Below are positions 5,650-48,436 of a DNA stretch of 64,000 bases, one piece after another (position 1 is the stretch's first letter; the number at the start of each line of letters is the position of its first letter). Source of the DNA: Candidatus Paracaedibacteraceae bacterium (GTDB taxonomy: Bacteria > Pseudomonadota > Alphaproteobacteria > Paracaedibacterales > CAIOTO01); NCBI GenBank assembly GCA_030694965.1, contig JAUYTZ010000013.1, positions 124,001 through 188,000 on the forward strand. The letters run 5' to 3'. The translations under genes and the position numbers were made by a program. Below the pieces are notes generated by a model that saw only the letters and a program-made list of their open reading frames with translations, had not been told where the DNA came from and ran no database searches.

Positions 5650-7086
5650 TTATGCACCAATAGCTTCGTCAGGAAGCATGTCTTCATCACCACGATGCCT
5701 TAAATCATGCACGCCAAGTGCACGTAATTTGCGATGCAATGCAGAACGCTCCATGCCAATAAAACGAGCTGTTTGTGAAATATTTCCTGAGAAGCGATTT
5801 ACTTGCGCTAATAGATATTCACGTTCAAATGCTTCACGTGCCTCACGCAAAGGTAAGACAACAATATCAGCACTTTTACTTTGCCAATTAGAAACAAACG
5901 TATTTCCATTAATAATTTCTAAAGGTAAATGGGATGCTAAAATAGGATGCTGTGTTTCTGTGTTAAGCATAATCAATAGCCAATCAATAACATTGCGCAT
6001 TTGCTGCAAATCACCAGGCCAGTTATAAGATTGCATCAATACAATTGCATCTTCAGCAAAAACACGAGATTGCATGCCAGAAGCAGCGGCAGCTTCATCC
6101 ATTAAGCGCTGCGCAATTATTGGAATATCACTCACTCGATCTTTCAATGCAGGAAGCATAACATGGGTTACACTTAAACGATAATAAAGATCTTCTCTAA
6201 AGTTTCCCTCTTGAATCATTAGCTGCACGTCATCAGATGTACCCGCAATGAAGCGCACATCAATTGGAAGCTTTTCGGAACCACCAACACGCGTAAAGGC
6301 TTGCTCTTGTAAAATTTTTACAAGACGTGATTGCAGTGGAAGTGGTAATTGAGTGATTTCATCAAAATAAATTGTACCACCATGGGCTTGTTCTAAAATA
6401 CCAATTTTACGTGGTTGATTTGAATCATGATTCACAATTTCAGTCCCAAGAAGGTCCGCTTCTAATTTTGTGGGATGCATTGCGCCACAATTTACCACAC
6501 AAAATGAAGCTTGCGCACGCTTCGATTGTAAATGAATTTCACGCGCTATGGATTCTTTACCACACCCAAGAGGACCTGTTATAAATACACGTCCATTTGT
6601 TTGGGCGCTTTTTTCAACAGTCTGACGCAACTGCGTTACATGGCTAGAGTTTCCAATCAAAGCAGTTGCTGTGACGCGTGCTTTAATGCGAAGTTCATCA
6701 TTTTCTCTTTTCAATCGAGAAGACTCAATTGCACGTCGGGCAACTAGTAATAATCGCTCTGTTTGAAAAGGCTTTTCAATGAAATCATACGCCCCCTTTT
6801 TGATAGCCGAAACAGCTGTTTCAATAGTGCTATGCCCACTAATCATAATAACAGGTACATATGGATGATCACGCTTGATAATATCTAAAATTTTTAAACC
6901 ATCACGTTCTCCATCACCAAGCCAAACATCCAAAACAACCAAGTTAGGCTGACGTTGCTTGATTGATTCAAGTGCTGATATACCATCAGAGGCTGTACGT
7001 GTAGCATAGCCTTCATCTTCCAGTATTCCTGACACAAGTTCACGGATATCACTTTCATCATCTACAATTAAAATATCCTGAGACAT
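5650..7086 (-). CDS. ntrX: Nitrogen/redox response regulator NtrX
   Basis: NtrX is the response regulator partner of the NtrY kinase. The 478-residue protein has an N-terminal receiver domain, with the phospho-acceptor aspartate in VVLDVWLG near residue 53 and the conserved lysine in FIEKPF near residue 104. A central AAA+ domain follows (Walker A FITGPLGCGKES near residue 169, Walker B IYFDEI near 239) and then a Fis-type helix-turn-helix ending (NISQTARFIGMERSALHRKL). The loop where sigma-54 activators carry GAFTGA instead reads through NHDSNQPRKIGILEQ, so direct sigma-54 activation is unlikely; this absence is, as far as I recall, usual for NtrX. The ATG overlaps the ntrY stop in TAATG, indicating translational coupling. 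Confidence 0.95.
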   Translation of the reverse strand: MSQDILIVDDESDIRELVSGILEDEGYATRTASDGISALESIKQRQPNLVVLDVWLGDGERDGLKILDIIKRDHPYVPVIMISGHSTIETAVSAIKKGAYDFIEKPFQTERLLLVARRAIESSRLKRENDELRIKARVTATALIGNSSHVTQLRQTVEKSAQTNGRVFITGPLGCGKESIAREIHLQSKRAQASFCVVNCGAMHPTKLEADLLGTEIVNHDSNQPRKIGILEQAHGGTIYFDEITQLPLPLQSRLVKILQEQAFTRVGGSEKLPIDVRFIAGTSDDVQLMIQEGNFREDLYYRLSVTHVMLPALKDRVSDIPIIAQRLMDEAAAASGMQSRVFAEDAIVLMQSYNWPGDLQQMRNVIDWLLIMLNTETQHPILASHLPLEIINGNTFVSNWQSKSADIVVLPLREAREAFEREYLLAQVNRFSGNISQTARFIGMERSALHRKLRALGVHDLRHRGDEDMLPDEAIGA

Positions 7087-8948
7087 TAATTAGCATCCTT
7101 TTCTTTTTTGTCACGATTTAAAAAACTTAAAACAACCGACGCACCTTTTAAGTCCTTACTTTCTTTCAATTCAATCCTGCCTTGATGATCAGAAACGATT
7201 CGATATACAATAGCCAATCCTAAGCCACTACCTTTATCACGCGTTGTGTAATATGGCTCAAGCAGTTTGTTTTTTTCAATATTTGGAAATCCTGGGCCAT
7301 TATCATCTATTGAAACACATAATATAGGGTTATTTTCATAAAGTCTAAGCTTAATCTTTGGTGGATTGGTAGAATTTTTATTTTCAGAAATAGCATTAAT
7401 TGCATTTTGCAAAAGATTATTCAAAACCTGTGTCATTTGGAAAGAATCAATCCATGCAAAATAACTATCATATGCAGATTCAAATTCAAACTCAATCTCA
7501 GGATGTGCTTGAATTTGTAAAAAAAGCGCGTGATTGCATAGCTCAATCCAATTCACAAATTCAAATTTTGGTTCTGGCATGCGCGCAAAATTTGAAAATT
7601 CATTAACCAAGTTTCCAATGCTTCCAACTTGGCGAATAATGGTTTCCACACAAGCTTGAAACGTTTTAGGGTCAGATGTAATTTCTTTTAAATAACGACG
7701 TTTCAATCGCTCTGCGGAAAGTTGAATTGGCGTTAAAGGGTTTTTAATTTCATGCGCAATTTTGCGTGCCATATCTGCCCAAGCGGATTTTTTTTCAGAC
7801 AAAATTAAGTCATGTTTTTGCTGCAATAGTTGATGCGTCATACGATTAAAAGACCGACACAAGTCATCAATTTCATTGTTAACAGCATGCGTTTCAAGTT
7901 TTATAGACAAATCACCTTCAGCAACAGCCTCAGCGGCTGCTATCAATTTAGTAATAGGTTTTACCATTGAATCAGCAATAACAAGCCCCCCCCATATGGC
8001 TGCCATAAGTAGAAGCAAAGCAACAATGGTAAAAAATGCAACAAACGTAAATTGAACATCAACATGTTGACCTTCAAGCCTAGCATAATCTTGAATAGCT
8101 GATTTTGTTAAATCAACGTGTTTCAATACTTTTTGATCAATGAATTTTCCTACAAGCAAATACGTATCTGTTGAATAGTCTAATTTAATAAGAGCCCGAA
8201 CCCTATCTTTTGCTTTTGACTCAATAATAACTGGGGTTTGGGGATCTTTCTTAAGTATTTTTAAAGCATCTGTAAGATCTTCAAGTATTAGTGAAAAACT
8301 AAGATAAGATCTACCTAAAATGCGAGGTGGCTTTTGATTGTCAAAAATTAGAATCTCAGCAAGACCACGCTCATCTGCTTCGCGGCTTAAATTTTCAGAT
8401 AACTCGTCAAGATGTGCTTGATTTTCATGCTGCTCAACAAAAGATGGCATCAAAGGACTATAAAGCCGCTTTAATGATTCAATATCAAAGGATATTGATT
8501 TTTTATGTTCTTTCAAATAAGACTCAGCCACAACGCTTGCTTCTTGCAAGGCATCATGGACAGGCTTGCCAAACCATGCATCAACACCTATATTGAAAAA
8601 CTGTGCAGAAAAAAAAGCAACACAAAGCGCAGGAGCAACAGAAACAACAACAAATAAGATAACTATATGCGCATGCAACTTAGATCCCTTAAGTCCTTGC
8701 CGTTTTTCAGTCCATAACTCGACAGACTTTCGAGCAACAACAAAAACAAGAAGAAGAAGAAGTGTTAGATCAAGATAGATCAAAAAAATTACAGATCTGC
8801 TTTTTTCGCCAAGAGCAATATTGCGTGTCAGTGCCCAATAAGTAGCAAAACCACAAATAATGGCAAGTATGCTCAATAAATAAGGCAGCTTGCTTACTAT
8901 ATTGTAGCGACGGCTAATACTTAGAACACGATTGTAATAGTAGTTCAT
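7086..8948 (-). CDS. ntrY: Membrane sensor histidine kinase NtrY
   Basis: This is the sensor kinase that phosphorylates NtrX. The 620-residue protein has hydrophobic segments near residues 22-42, 50-70 and 92-115, a periplasmic loop of roughly 160 residues, a further membrane segment near residue 300 and a HAMP linker. The HisKA box ARKIAHEIKNPLTPIQLS lies near residues 395-412 with the phospho-accepting His in AHEIKNP. The HATPase domain shows NNLLQNAINAI, DNGPGFP and GSGLGLAIVYRIV. HAMP runs almost directly into HisKA, so the PAS domain of longer NtrY proteins appears to be missing, which fits the short length. The gene begins 10 bases after the upstream transporter stop and ends in ntrX. 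Confidence 0.93.
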   Translation of the reverse strand: MNYYYNRVLSISRRYNIVSKLPYLLSILAIICGFATYWALTRNIALGEKSRSVIFLIYLDLTLLLLLVFVVARKSVELWTEKRQGLKGSKLHAHIVILFVVVSVAPALCVAFFSAQFFNIGVDAWFGKPVHDALQEASVVAESYLKEHKKSISFDIESLKRLYSPLMPSFVEQHENQAHLDELSENLSREADERGLAEILIFDNQKPPRILGRSYLSFSLILEDLTDALKILKKDPQTPVIIESKAKDRVRALIKLDYSTDTYLLVGKFIDQKVLKHVDLTKSAIQDYARLEGQHVDVQFTFVAFFTIVALLLLMAAIWGGLVIADSMVKPITKLIAAAEAVAEGDLSIKLETHAVNNEIDDLCRSFNRMTHQLLQQKHDLILSEKKSAWADMARKIAHEIKNPLTPIQLSAERLKRRYLKEITSDPKTFQACVETIIRQVGSIGNLVNEFSNFARMPEPKFEFVNWIELCNHALFLQIQAHPEIEFEFESAYDSYFAWIDSFQMTQVLNNLLQNAINAISENKNSTNPPKIKLRLYENNPILCVSIDDNGPGFPNIEKNKLLEPYYTTRDKGSGLGLAIVYRIVSDHQGRIELKESKDLKGASVVLSFLNRDKKEKDAN

Positions 8949-23477: not shown

Positions 23478-24053
23478 TTAAGCGGGCGTTATTACAGGGG
23501 GGGTAGCAGTTGCTGCTGGCTCAGTTACAGCACCAGCTATTACTGCAGGAACAGAAGAACCAGCGGCTGCATCTGGAGAGGTCACGACCGGGGGATTAGC
23601 CGCGGTTTGAGGCTTTGCTGAAGGAGCAGCTGGCGCTGAAGAAATTGGTAACGCTGCTGGCTGTGGAACTGGGGAAGGCGCATTTGCAGATGAGGTGGCA
23701 GCCACTGGCTGCATAGATGAAGGCGTGTGAACACCTGCAACAGTTACAGGATCAACATTTCCTTTAACTCCCGATGCAGCATTTTTGTTTTGAAACATCT
23801 GCAAAAGAGCGGCAGGTATAATCGACTCTGTGCTTTCGTGCTCAGAAATTGAGCCCAACTTAATTACTTTACATTGCCCTTCTGAAGCGCAGTAATTAAG
23901 CATATTGGTCTTACGGTCAAAGACAAACATCGCTTTATCTGTTGGCAATGGAATGAGGATAAAACGTTCATGGTGCGCATTGTATGCAATATAACTTGCA
24001 AATAAAATTAAAGTTGTCAAACTTATAATCAGGGTTGATTTTATACCGCTCAT
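23478..24053 (-). CDS. Membrane-anchored protein with Pro/Ala-rich tail
   Basis: No family is recognised. The 191-residue protein has one N-terminal hydrophobic segment (residues 7-23, LIISLTTLILFASYIAY) and a short ordered region of about 80 residues (RFILIPLPTDKAMFVFDRKT) with two cysteines in CASEGQC. From about residue 110 a long low-complexity tail of Pro, Ala, Ser, Thr and Val follows. The tail could span the periplasm as a flexible linker. Codon use in the tail (GCA, CCA, GCT) is less AT-biased than the surroundings because of composition. It stands alone between mreB and a divergent serine hydrolase gene. Confidence 0.65.
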   Translation of the reverse strand: MSGIKSTLIISLTTLILFASYIAYNAHHERFILIPLPTDKAMFVFDRKTNMLNYCASEGQCKVIKLGSISEHESTESIIPAALLQMFQNKNAASGVKGNVDPVTVAGVHTPSSMQPVAATSSANAPSPVPQPAALPISSAPAAPSAKPQTAANPPVVTSPDAAAGSSVPAVIAGAVTEPAATATPPVITPA

Positions 24054-44680: not shown

Positions 44681-46816
44681 TTAAGCACCAGCAGCTTCAC
44701 TAACAGCAACGTCTTCCGCATCTAAAGCAGGAACAGCCTTCATGCTAAGCTTAATCTTACCGCGATCATCAAAACCAAGAACTTTAACTTTCACAACATC
44801 ACCAACATTTACAACATCTGATACTTTTGCAACGCGGCGATCAGCAAGCTCACTCACATGAACAAGACCGTCTTTTGCGCCCATAAAGTTAACAAATGCG
44901 CCAAACTCTGCGATCTTCACTACCGTACCGCTGTAAATTGCACCAACTTCTGGATCACCAGCAATTGACATAATCGTTGCAACAGCTTTATCAAGTGATT
45001 GTTGGTTATGTGCAGCAACAGTTACTGTGCCATCATCTTGAATATCAATTTTAGCGCCAGTTGTTTCGCAAATTTCACGAATCACTTTACCGCCAGCACC
45101 AATAACATCACGAATTTTATCACGATTAATTGCAAATGAAGTTAAACGTGGCGCATTATCACTAACAGCTGGACGTGATGATGTCATTGCTTTTGCCATT
45201 TCACCTAGAATATGTAAACGACCGTGCTTTGCTTGCTCAAGTGCGATCTGCATAATTTCAGGCGTAATGCTTGTAATTTTGATATCCATTTGAAGCGCAG
45301 TTACACCAGATTCTGTACCAGCAACCTTAAAGTCCATATCCCCTAAATGATCTTCATCACCTAAAATATCTGATAATACAGCAAATTTTTCTTTTTCTTT
45401 AATCAAACCCATTGCAATCCCTGCCACAGCTCTTTCCAATGGAACGCCTGCATCCATCATAGACAATGACGCGCCACAAACGGTTGCCATCGATGATGAA
45501 CCATTTGATTCTGTAATTTCAGAAACCGTACGAAGCGTGTAAGGGAAATTTGCTTTTGTTGGAATGATTGGTGACATTGCGCGCCATGCGAGTTTACCAT
45601 GACCAATTTCACGACGCCCTGGACCTGAAACACGACCTACTTCACCAACGGAATAGGATGGAAAGTTATAGTGAAGCATAAAACGTTCACGGTATTCACC
45701 ATCTAACGAGTCAATAATTTGCTCATCTTGACCAGTACCAAGCGTTGTTACAACAAGTGCTTGTGTTTCGCCGCGTGTGAATAAAGCACTACCATGTGTA
45801 CGTGGCAATACACCAATTTCACATACGATTTGGCGAATTTCATCTAATGCACGACCATCAACACGTTCTGCATTATTTAAAATGTTGCTGCGAAGAATAT
45901 TTGATTGTAATGTTTCAAAAGCAATATCAAGCAAACCATCATGCCCAGAAAATTCTTCATCTAACGCCTCATGAAGTTTTGTTTTTGCAGCATGAATTGC
46001 AGCGTAACGATCTTGTTTTGATTTGTTTTCGTATGCTTTGATCAAATCAGCTTCAATTACTTCCTTAGCACGCTTATTAACAGTAACCATTACTGGATTT
46101 TCTTCAGCAATAACCCATGCATCTTTTGATGCTTTTATTTTTAAGCTTTCAATCATTTTAACAACGTCTTGGAAGGCTGTATGACCAAACACTACAGCAT
46201 CAAGCATTGTTTGCTCTGACAACTCTTTCGCTTGTGATTCAACCATCAAAACGCCTTCTTTTGTGCCAGCAACAACCAAATCAAGCGCACTTGTAGCAAG
46301 TTGCTCACGTGTTGGGTTCAATACAAACGCGCCCTCAACCAAACCAACCCGCGCAGCAGCAACTGGCCCTAAAAATGGAACGCCTGAAATAGCAAGTGCT
46401 GCAGAGGCACCAATCAAAGCAACGATATCTGAATCAGCATCTGTATCATAGCTCATTACCGTGCAAAGAACTTGAACTTCATTATAAAAACCTTCAGGAA
46501 ACAGTGGGCGAATCGGACGATCGATCAAACGTGATGTTAAAACTTCCTTTTCTGATGGCTTTGCTTCTCTTTTATAGAAACCACCAGGAATACGACCTAC
46601 AGCAAATGCCTTTTCAAGGTAGTGAACACTCAATGGGAAAAAATCTGCATTTGGTTTTGCTTTTTTAGCAGCAACAACCGTACACAAAATAGATGTATCG
46701 CCGTATGTAACCATAACAGCGCCGTCAGCTTGACGTGCTATTTTTCCGGTTTCAAGAACAAGCGTACGTCCAGCCCAATTAAGTTCTTCACGGTGTATGT
46801 TAAACATGTTTGTCAT
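44681..46816 (-). CDS. pnp: Polyribonucleotide nucleotidyltransferase (PNPase)
   Basis: PNPase degrades RNA 3' to 5' with phosphate and is part of the RNA degradosome. The 711-residue protein has two RNase PH domains ([39 protein letters not shown] near residue 345 with [13 protein letters not shown]), then a KH domain ([20 protein letters not shown] near residue 567) and an S1 domain ([20 protein letters not shown] near residue 630). Domain order and length are complete. It has its own terminator. The usual upstream neighbour rpsO is not seen here. Confidence 0.97.
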
Positions 46817-47039
46817 TAATTTCTCTTTTCATTATTAAACAATCTATGCTTTATCAAGCAAACTCAGCATCTTGAAATCAAAAAACCAAAAAGAGAAGAT
46901 AAAATACTACTCATTTATCATTTATACCTTTGGATATCAAGATCCTGAATGAGTGCTAACATAAAGCAAACTCAATTATAAGGTAAAATACTAAAATTTA
47001 CGAAGAAAAAGAGAATTTTTAAGAAAAAAAGACATTCTA

Positions 47040-47788
47040 TTAAAATGCAATGCGATCAAATGGAATGTTCAAACTAAATAAAACCTTAGCTGCGGCTTTG
47101 CCCTCAGTTGGCTTTACAATTGTCGTATTGATATTGGCATATTTAAATAAATCAGCTTGGAACCCAAAACTCGGTCCTTTAACCAAGCGTACCTCCATAC
47201 TACGGTTATACGAATAACCGCCAAAAAATTTAAGTTGAGGCAAAAAAGGTACAGACATTCCCAATTTAGTGTCACTTGAAAGCGGCTGCATTTTTCGTTG
47301 ATACATATTGGCTATATTTTGATCATTTATTTGCGGCATAGCTTTAAAATAAGTAACCGTTAAATTTGTTGACTGTGTTGAAACCTCAGTTGAAATACCA
47401 TCACCTTTTGCAAGAAACGGAATTGCCGAATTGCGAGATGTCTGCATATGTGCAGTTACGTGATCACCTACAAAAAAACGACCAATTGCACTTTTTGATT
47501 TTACATTTGCATTATAATAAACTGTGCTTTTATATTCAGTCACCACAGGAGAGATTGCAACGTCATAATTAACGTGATCTTTATTGAGAATATCTATTCC
47601 ATTTTCTTTTTGCTTTTGTCCTGAAAGCTGGGCAACAGGATGCACAGCGAACAAGTCATTTTTTTAACATTAGCCCCTAAAAAAGAGCCATTAGATGACA
47701 GCTGCGTTAATCCATACGATAACGCATAAAAATTAGCCCCTTGCACTGTTTTAAAGAAAGCAAAGAACATTACTGCAAAAAAATACAA
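47040..47788 (-). pseudogene. Frameshifted outer-membrane beta-barrel (inverse-autotransporter-like) protein
   Basis: Two minus-strand frames join smoothly at a run of seven A (T at 47659-47665). The upstream frame encodes a signal-like segment (FAVMFFAFFKTVQGANFYAL) and ends SNGSFLGANVKK; the downstream frame continues NDLFAVHPVAQLSG and ends NIPFDRIAF. One extra A would fuse them into about 248 residues. The C-terminus has beta-barrel features: SVPFLPQLKFFGGYSYNR, GFQADLFKYANINTTI and a final Phe, resembling inverse-autotransporter barrels. The upstream frame opens at TTG 47786-47788; an ATG a little further upstream (MIRFFC) would also join in frame if a second run of seven T were eight. 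It may be a pseudogene, a sequencing error or a phase-variable gene. Confidence 0.55.
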
Positions 47789-47860
47789 AAGAACCGAATC
47801 ATGCTGTACTATTTTGTTAGTCTATCCCCCTCAGAGTAGAAGTTAAATGTTAATATACTG

Positions 47861-48436
47861 TTAACAATCAATTTTCTTTTTCTCATAATAACGCACATGC
47901 ATTAGCACTAAAAAGCTAAAGAGCAAAACCGTAATTATCCCTGAAAATTTTGACTGCCCCATCCCAAGTGAGAAAAAAATAAATGAAAAGAAAGCAAAAA
48001 CACCAGCGGCATCTCCTCCGCAAGGCATATATCCCGTAGGAAACGCTTTTTTCCACGCCCCTAACCACAACAAATGTGCAGAATTTGCAAATAGACCACC
48101 CACAATAGCAAACGTAATATTAACGCTTAAAATAGCCGTCTTAAAAGAATCAATAGAATGAGCGTGAGACCAATACAAACATGCGGAAAATAAGAAAATT
48201 GTAAACAAAAGATAAACAAAAGCAACAAGATACAGACGTCGATAAATCAACCAAACAGCCCCTAGCCCAGTAACACTGCATAAGAACGCAACCCAATTCC
48301 AAACAATACGCTCGCCACTTTGCCAACGCGCATACAGATCTTGATAATAATGCATACGCAAAGGTGAAACAGATGATCTCAAACGCTCGCCATATATAAG
48401 ATACAAAAAATCACGTTCAGAAAAAGGGAGATTCAT
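47861..48436 (-). CDS. DUF2628-like membrane protein
   Basis: The 191-residue protein has a hydrophilic N-terminus (MNLPFSERDFLYLIYGERLR), then the block VWNWVAFLCSVTGLGAVWLI followed by YRRLYL near residue 45, which resembles the FNW-AFF-GP-WLLYRKMY pattern of DUF2628 proteins. Four or five hydrophobic segments follow (YLLFTIFLFSACLYW; AILSVNITFAIVGGLF; VFAFFSFIFFSLGMG; GIITVLLFSFLVLM). Function is unknown. It lies upstream of the frameshifted surface-protein gene and may share its transcript. Confidence 0.6.
   Translation of the reverse strand: MNLPFSERDFLYLIYGERLRSSVSPLRMHYYQDLYARWQSGERIVWNWVAFLCSVTGLGAVWLIYRRLYLVAFVYLLFTIFLFSACLYWSHAHSIDSFKTAILSVNITFAIVGGLFANSAHLLWLGAWKKAFPTGYMPCGGDAAGVFAFFSFIFFSLGMGQSKFSGIITVLLFSFLVLMHVRYYEKKKIDC

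What the first reader, a model, noticed from the sequence alone, without database searches (positions are those of the whole stretch)
47040..47788. Surface-protein gene split at a seven-A homopolymer, possibly phase variable
The two minus-strand reading frames join into one signal-peptide-plus-beta-barrel protein if the A7 run (T at 47659-47665) were eight. A second run of seven T near the N-terminus would also need to be eight to include the upstream ATG. Homopolymer slippage is a known on/off switch for outer-membrane proteins. Recent decay or a sequencing error are the alternatives.
Basis: partly seen in the sequence, partly recalled or inferred. Interest (0 to 1): 0.62.

Follow-up and report, generated by a model that had tools for sequence, protein, structure and literature searches.

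The report
Recently broken outer-membrane barrel gene
A small outer-membrane barrel gene found only in one genus of uncultured, probably freshwater bacteria is intact in three relatives but broken here at two short runs of identical letters, most likely by ordinary recent gene decay (or an assembly slip) and not by an on/off switch.

Summary
On the minus strand a signal-peptide frame (47594-47788) and a 204-aa frame (47040-47654) are offset by one base at an A7 run (plus strand 47659-47665). The upstream ATG (47802) is cut off by a second seven-base run (47777-47783). Three same-genus genomes carry the gene uninterrupted (251, 211 and 214 aa), two of them also just upstream of pnp, so this is one broken gene. 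The protein family is genus-restricted.

Phase variation is not supported. Seven-base A/T runs are common here (about one per 760 bp), lie below published poly-A/T cut-offs (9 or 11), are absent at these positions in relatives, and both would have to be in register. Widespread assembly error is also unlikely: about 170 A/T runs of 7-9 sit unbroken in homologous coding DNA, and 8- and 9-base runs are not depleted. Best reading: recent loss of function. The inverse-autotransporter family, present in four relatives, was not found elsewhere in this genome. A local base-call error remains the main rival and needs the raw reads.

The parts
47040..47654 (-). 3' part of the broken gene: 204-aa frame holding the predicted beta-barrel strands and the C-terminal Phe
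   Evidence: ORF; orthologous to intact proteins in G001, G002, G003, 48-56% identity
47594..47788 (-). 5' part: frame with the hydrophobic signal-peptide core, opened only by a TTG
   Evidence: ORF; matches the N-terminal signal region of the intact orthologues
47659..47665 (-). A7 run (mRNA sense) where the reading frame is lost
   Evidence: sequence; the aligned G001 stretch is one base longer and not a homopolymer
47777..47783 (-). T7 run (mRNA sense) that puts the upstream ATG out of frame
   Evidence: sequence
47770..47802 (-). ATG-started 10-codon stub, the probable original start
   Evidence: sequence; start position matches the orthologues in the upstream alignment
47472..47478 (-). 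third seven-base run (T7 in mRNA sense), in frame and shared with G001
   Evidence: shows that a run of this length is kept intact in the same gene
44681..46816 (-). pnp, conserved downstream neighbour (context)
   Evidence: same order gene then pnp in G000, G001, G003

Best explanation
The locus is a recently inactivated copy of a genus-specific outer-membrane beta-barrel gene, whose C-terminal strands resemble the intimin/invasin (inverse autotransporter) barrel. Replication slippage shortened two ordinary A/T runs by one base each, near the 5' end. Translation from the true ATG now stops after 10 codons, and any TTG-started product stops about 20 codons after the A7, so no exported barrel is made. 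Shown: the frame breaks, the intact relatives, the constrained coding sequence with no other stop, and the lack of any other inverse-autotransporter-like match in this genome. Inferred: that the breaks are real, recent and without compensation.
For: Intact single-frame orthologues in three congeners, two of them next to pnp as here. At the A7 the aligned G001 sequence is one base longer and is not a homopolymer. The rest of the gene shows constraint: G000 versus G001 differ at 33%, 21% and 53% of first, second and third codon positions, and G000 is not significantly faster than G001 (Tajima 19:14 and 24:15), so the breaks are young. PF11924 is over its cut-off in G001, G002, G003 and G005 but absent from G000. 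A seven-member profile of those barrels finds only this broken gene in G000, which fits loss of this class of surface protein. The only other clear frameshift found in 618 kb of G000 is also at an A7 and in a gene that is 3'-truncated as well, so A-run slippage in dispensable genes occurs here.
Against: Apart from the two runs the gene is pristine, which an assembly error or a rescued gene would also give. Two same-direction single-base losses in one gene are a lot for a young pseudogene. No reads or second strain were available.
Confidence: 0.5

Rival explanations
1. Consensus or assembly error: one or both runs were called one base short and the gene is intact in the living cell.
For: Both breaks are one-base shortfalls in homopolymers and nothing else is wrong with the gene. 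The source is an assembled genome of 25 contigs, read technology unknown.
Against: About 170 A/T runs of 7-9 inside homologous coding DNA of G000 are unbroken. With zero errors in 170 the 95% upper limit is 1.7% per run, so two or more of the three runs in this gene wrong by chance is about 0.001 per gene. Runs of 8 and 9 are as frequent, relative to 7, as in the relatives. The third run in the same gene is in frame.
Confidence: 0.22
2. Phase variation: slipped-strand mispairing at the two 5' runs switches the barrel on and off.
For: Both runs sit in the first fifth of the gene of a probable surface protein, the usual place for translational switching.
Against: Runs of seven A/T are below the cut-offs used to call phase-variable tracts (9 in PMC2823697, 11 in PMC5953494). 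Such runs are commonplace here. Orthologues have no tract at either site. Two tracts must be in register together. The survey found no wider set of switched genes.
Confidence: 0.12
3. The breaks are real but partly rescued by RNA-polymerase or ribosome slippage at the runs, as known for poly-A tracts in insect endosymbionts and Citrobacter tssM.
For: Constraint persists across the gene. The upstream run reads T TTT TTG in the ATG frame, a heptamer of the classic -1 slippery type (sequence; type from own knowledge). Rescue at A11 and A9 is documented (PMC4256274) and inferred for Blochmannia (PMC3017870).
Against: Seven-base runs should slip far less: insertion frequency rises exponentially with run length (PMC5574713). 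The A7 is not preceded by an A, so it is not a canonical slippery heptamer. Two rescues would have to occur on one message.
Confidence: 0.08
4. No break: the 204-aa frame is a complete gene starting at TTG 47654 and the upstream frame is noise.
For: It is a full open frame that keeps most of the conserved region.
Against: It would lack the signal peptide that all three orthologues carry, while the upstream frame supplies just such a signal core, in place.
Confidence: 0.04

Closest known systems
Inverse autotransporter beta-domain (PF11924; intimin/invasin barrel)
   Same: Profile-profile match of the last ~75-95 residues to inverse-autotransporter barrels from the same bacterial family (hhalign E about 1e-4, probability 52-56%). 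A weak fold model lists intimin/invasin barrels 4e1s and 4e1t with Foldseek probability 0.98-0.99.
   Different: No Pfam hit of its own. Only 8 predicted strands, ends at the barrel with a terminal Phe, no passenger domain.
Homopolymer-frameshifted genes of AT-rich endosymbionts (Blochmannia, PMC3017870)
   Same: Single-base indel in an A/T run in an otherwise constrained gene of an AT-rich genome.
   Different: Runs of 7 here, against tracts of 9 or more emphasised there; two runs, not one; a surface gene that looks dispensable.
Slipped-strand phase-variable outer-membrane proteins (Neisseria, Helicobacter)
   Same: Surface protein with homopolymers near the 5' end.
   Different: Tract length, tract conservation and evidence of variation in the population are all lacking.

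Membership tests
Inverse autotransporter (PF11924) | Significant match to the IAT_beta profile | tested here: not met
   No PF11924 hit for window or orthologues; G000 has none genome-wide; only a distant profile-profile similarity
Inverse autotransporter (PF11924) | N-terminal 12-strand barrel followed by a C-terminal passenger | tested here: not met
   Orthologues end right after the last predicted strand (211-251 aa); models show 8 strands, low confidence
Inverse autotransporter (PF11924) | Barrel fold like intimin/invasin | tested here: inconclusive
   Foldseek E 0.06-0.16, TM about 0.4, model pLDDT 42
Phase-variable (contingency) gene | Homopolymer long enough to be hypermutable (A/T 9 or 11 and above in published searches) | tested here: not met
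   Both runs are 7; cut-offs in PMC2823697 and PMC5953494
Phase-variable (contingency) gene | Tract retained in orthologues | tested here: not met
   No run of seven at either site in G001, G002, G003
Phase-variable (contingency) gene | Mixed tract lengths in the population | not testable with these tools
   No reads or conspecific genomes held
Recent pseudogene | Frame-disrupting change in a gene intact in relatives | tested here: met
Recent pseudogene | Relaxed constraint on the broken lineage | tested here: inconclusive
   G000 slightly but not significantly faster than G001 (chi2 0.76 and 2.08)

The most novel reading that the evidence does not exclude
A passenger-less mini inverse-autotransporter-like barrel, unique to one genus of probably freshwater alphaproteobacteria, is switched by two short A/T tracts in series, so that both must be in register for surface expression.
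Probability: 0.07. Interest if true: 0.5.

Novelty: new member of a known kind. Interest (0 to 1): 0.2.

Why it matters
If real, it records the loss of a lineage-specific surface protein in a small-genome alphaproteobacterium whose relatives keep it along with one or two inverse autotransporters. It also warns that short A/T runs in AT-rich assembled genomes are weak evidence for phase variation. The barrel family itself is uncharacterised.

Tried and rejected
Pfam and NCBIfam on the pieces and orthologues: nothing. PDB by sequence: nothing. Viral and plasmid collections: no relatives. Order-wide search (42 genomes): family confined to the genus. Coding-potential scan for split genes at runs gave a few candidates per genome that look like ordinary operon junctions (not checked one by one), and this gene falls below its threshold. 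Biopython dN/dS failed for saturated pairs, so codon-position differences were used. Gene absence in G004 is uninformative because its pnp contig ends there. G002 run densities are unreliable because 60 kb of its stretches are masked.

Full report
CHECK. The window is G000:C7:124001-188000, a 1.5-Mb, 25-contig genome, 98.6% complete. The probable start, ATG 47802-47800, reads 10 codons to TAA. The signal-peptide core lies in a frame opened only by TTG 47788, and the barrel part lies in another register from 47654. So there are two frame breaks, each of one base.

ONE GENE. Searches of 96 relatives found intact single-frame orthologues in three of the four other genomes of the genus held here: G001 (251 aa), G002 (211 aa) and G003 (214 aa), 48-56% identical over the matched part. 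G001 and G003 keep the order gene then pnp. The fourth, G004, is uninformative because its pnp contig ends at that point. Outside the genus there is none: 42 genomes of the order, plasmids and viral contigs. The public records of the three relatives are uncultured Alphaproteobacteria MAGs, isolates Umea_bin-10455, ZE05-15may19-27 and ZE-15may19-162; that these come from lakes is my inference from the names.

WHAT THE PROTEIN IS. It has no Pfam or NCBIfam match of its own. Weak hits led to long proteins in G002 and G003 whose N-terminus is an inverse autotransporter beta-domain (PF11924, E 1.1e-13). Profile-profile comparison aligns the last ~75-95 residues with the end of those barrels (E about 1e-4, probability 52-56%). 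Two AlphaFold models, of low confidence (pLDDT 39 and 42), each show a signal helix and eight C-terminal strands. The second model's hits with the highest Foldseek probability are PDB 5g26 and the intimin and invasin barrels 4e1s and 4e1t (0.98-1.00, but E 0.06-0.16 and TM about 0.4). All members end in Phe, as outer-membrane barrels commonly do (own knowledge). I call it a small barrel that works like an outer-membrane protein and resembles, but is not shown to belong to, the inverse autotransporter family.

WHY BROKEN. (a) Tract statistics: A/T runs of 7 or more occur at about 130 per 100 kb in the window, and the 7/6 and 8/7 ratios are like or above those of the relatives, so runs are not systematically shortened in this assembly. 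(b) Frameshift survey: proteins from G001, G002, G003 and G005 were compared with 618 kb of G000. They cover 224 kb of homologous coding DNA in 207 blocks with 170 internal A/T runs of 7-9. One clear frameshift other than this gene appeared, at an A7 in a gene of contig C5 (L025, about 5960) that also lacks its 3' end. With zero errors in 170, two bad runs of three in one gene has a chance of about 0.001. This argues against a general assembly problem but not against a local one. (c) Evolution: codon-position differences G000-G001 are 33, 21 and 53%, and relative-rate tests show no significant acceleration, so the gene was under constraint until recently. (d) Genome context: PF11924 proteins are over the cut-off in G001, G002, G003 and G005, absent in G000 and in the 75%-complete G004. 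In G000 a profile of seven such barrels finds only the broken gene. Loss of this class of surface protein in the lineage is therefore plausible.

PHASE VARIATION. Published searches use poly-A/T cut-offs of 9 (PMC2823697) or 11 (PMC5953494). Seven is below both, the orthologues have no tract at either site, and both tracts would need to be right at once. The third T7 of the gene is in frame and shared with G001. I put phase variation at 0.12, assembly error at 0.22, partial slippage rescue at 0.08 (compare tssM, PMC4256274, A11, and run-length dependence, PMC5574713), an unbroken short gene at 0.04, and recent loss of function at 0.50.

LIMITS. No reads, no second strain, three intact orthologues only, low-confidence fold models, and a sample (41%) of G000, not the whole.

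Noticed in passing
L007:991-3270 (G002), L006:1-2262 (G003); also L121 (G001): Inverse autotransporter barrels followed by long, apparently helical passengers carrying several IQ (calmodulin-binding) motifs by Pfam, an unusual pairing for a bacterial surface protein; G001's single IQ match is below the cut-off.
   Followed up: partly
L025:5854-6563 (G000:C5): A second gene broken at an A7 run in the same genome; its G002 homologue is intact (276 aa) and the G000 copy also ends early.
   Followed up: partly
window 7986-7993 and 23497-23503: A C8 run inside an intact sensor-kinase frame (7086-8948) and a G7 run near the end of the 23478-24053 frame: by one published poly-G/C cut-off (7 and above, PMC2823697) these fit phase-variation criteria better than the A7/T7 runs.
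   Followed up: no
window 46935-47025, L008 after 2233: The spacer between this gene and pnp keeps a short conserved stretch in G000 and G001 ('agcactcattcagg' in both), possibly the pnp promoter or leader.
   Followed up: no
window 47861-48436: Membrane protein with a sub-threshold DUF2628 match (E 0.0018) directly upstream of the broken gene; in G001 the upstream neighbour is a pseudouridine synthase instead.
   Followed up: no
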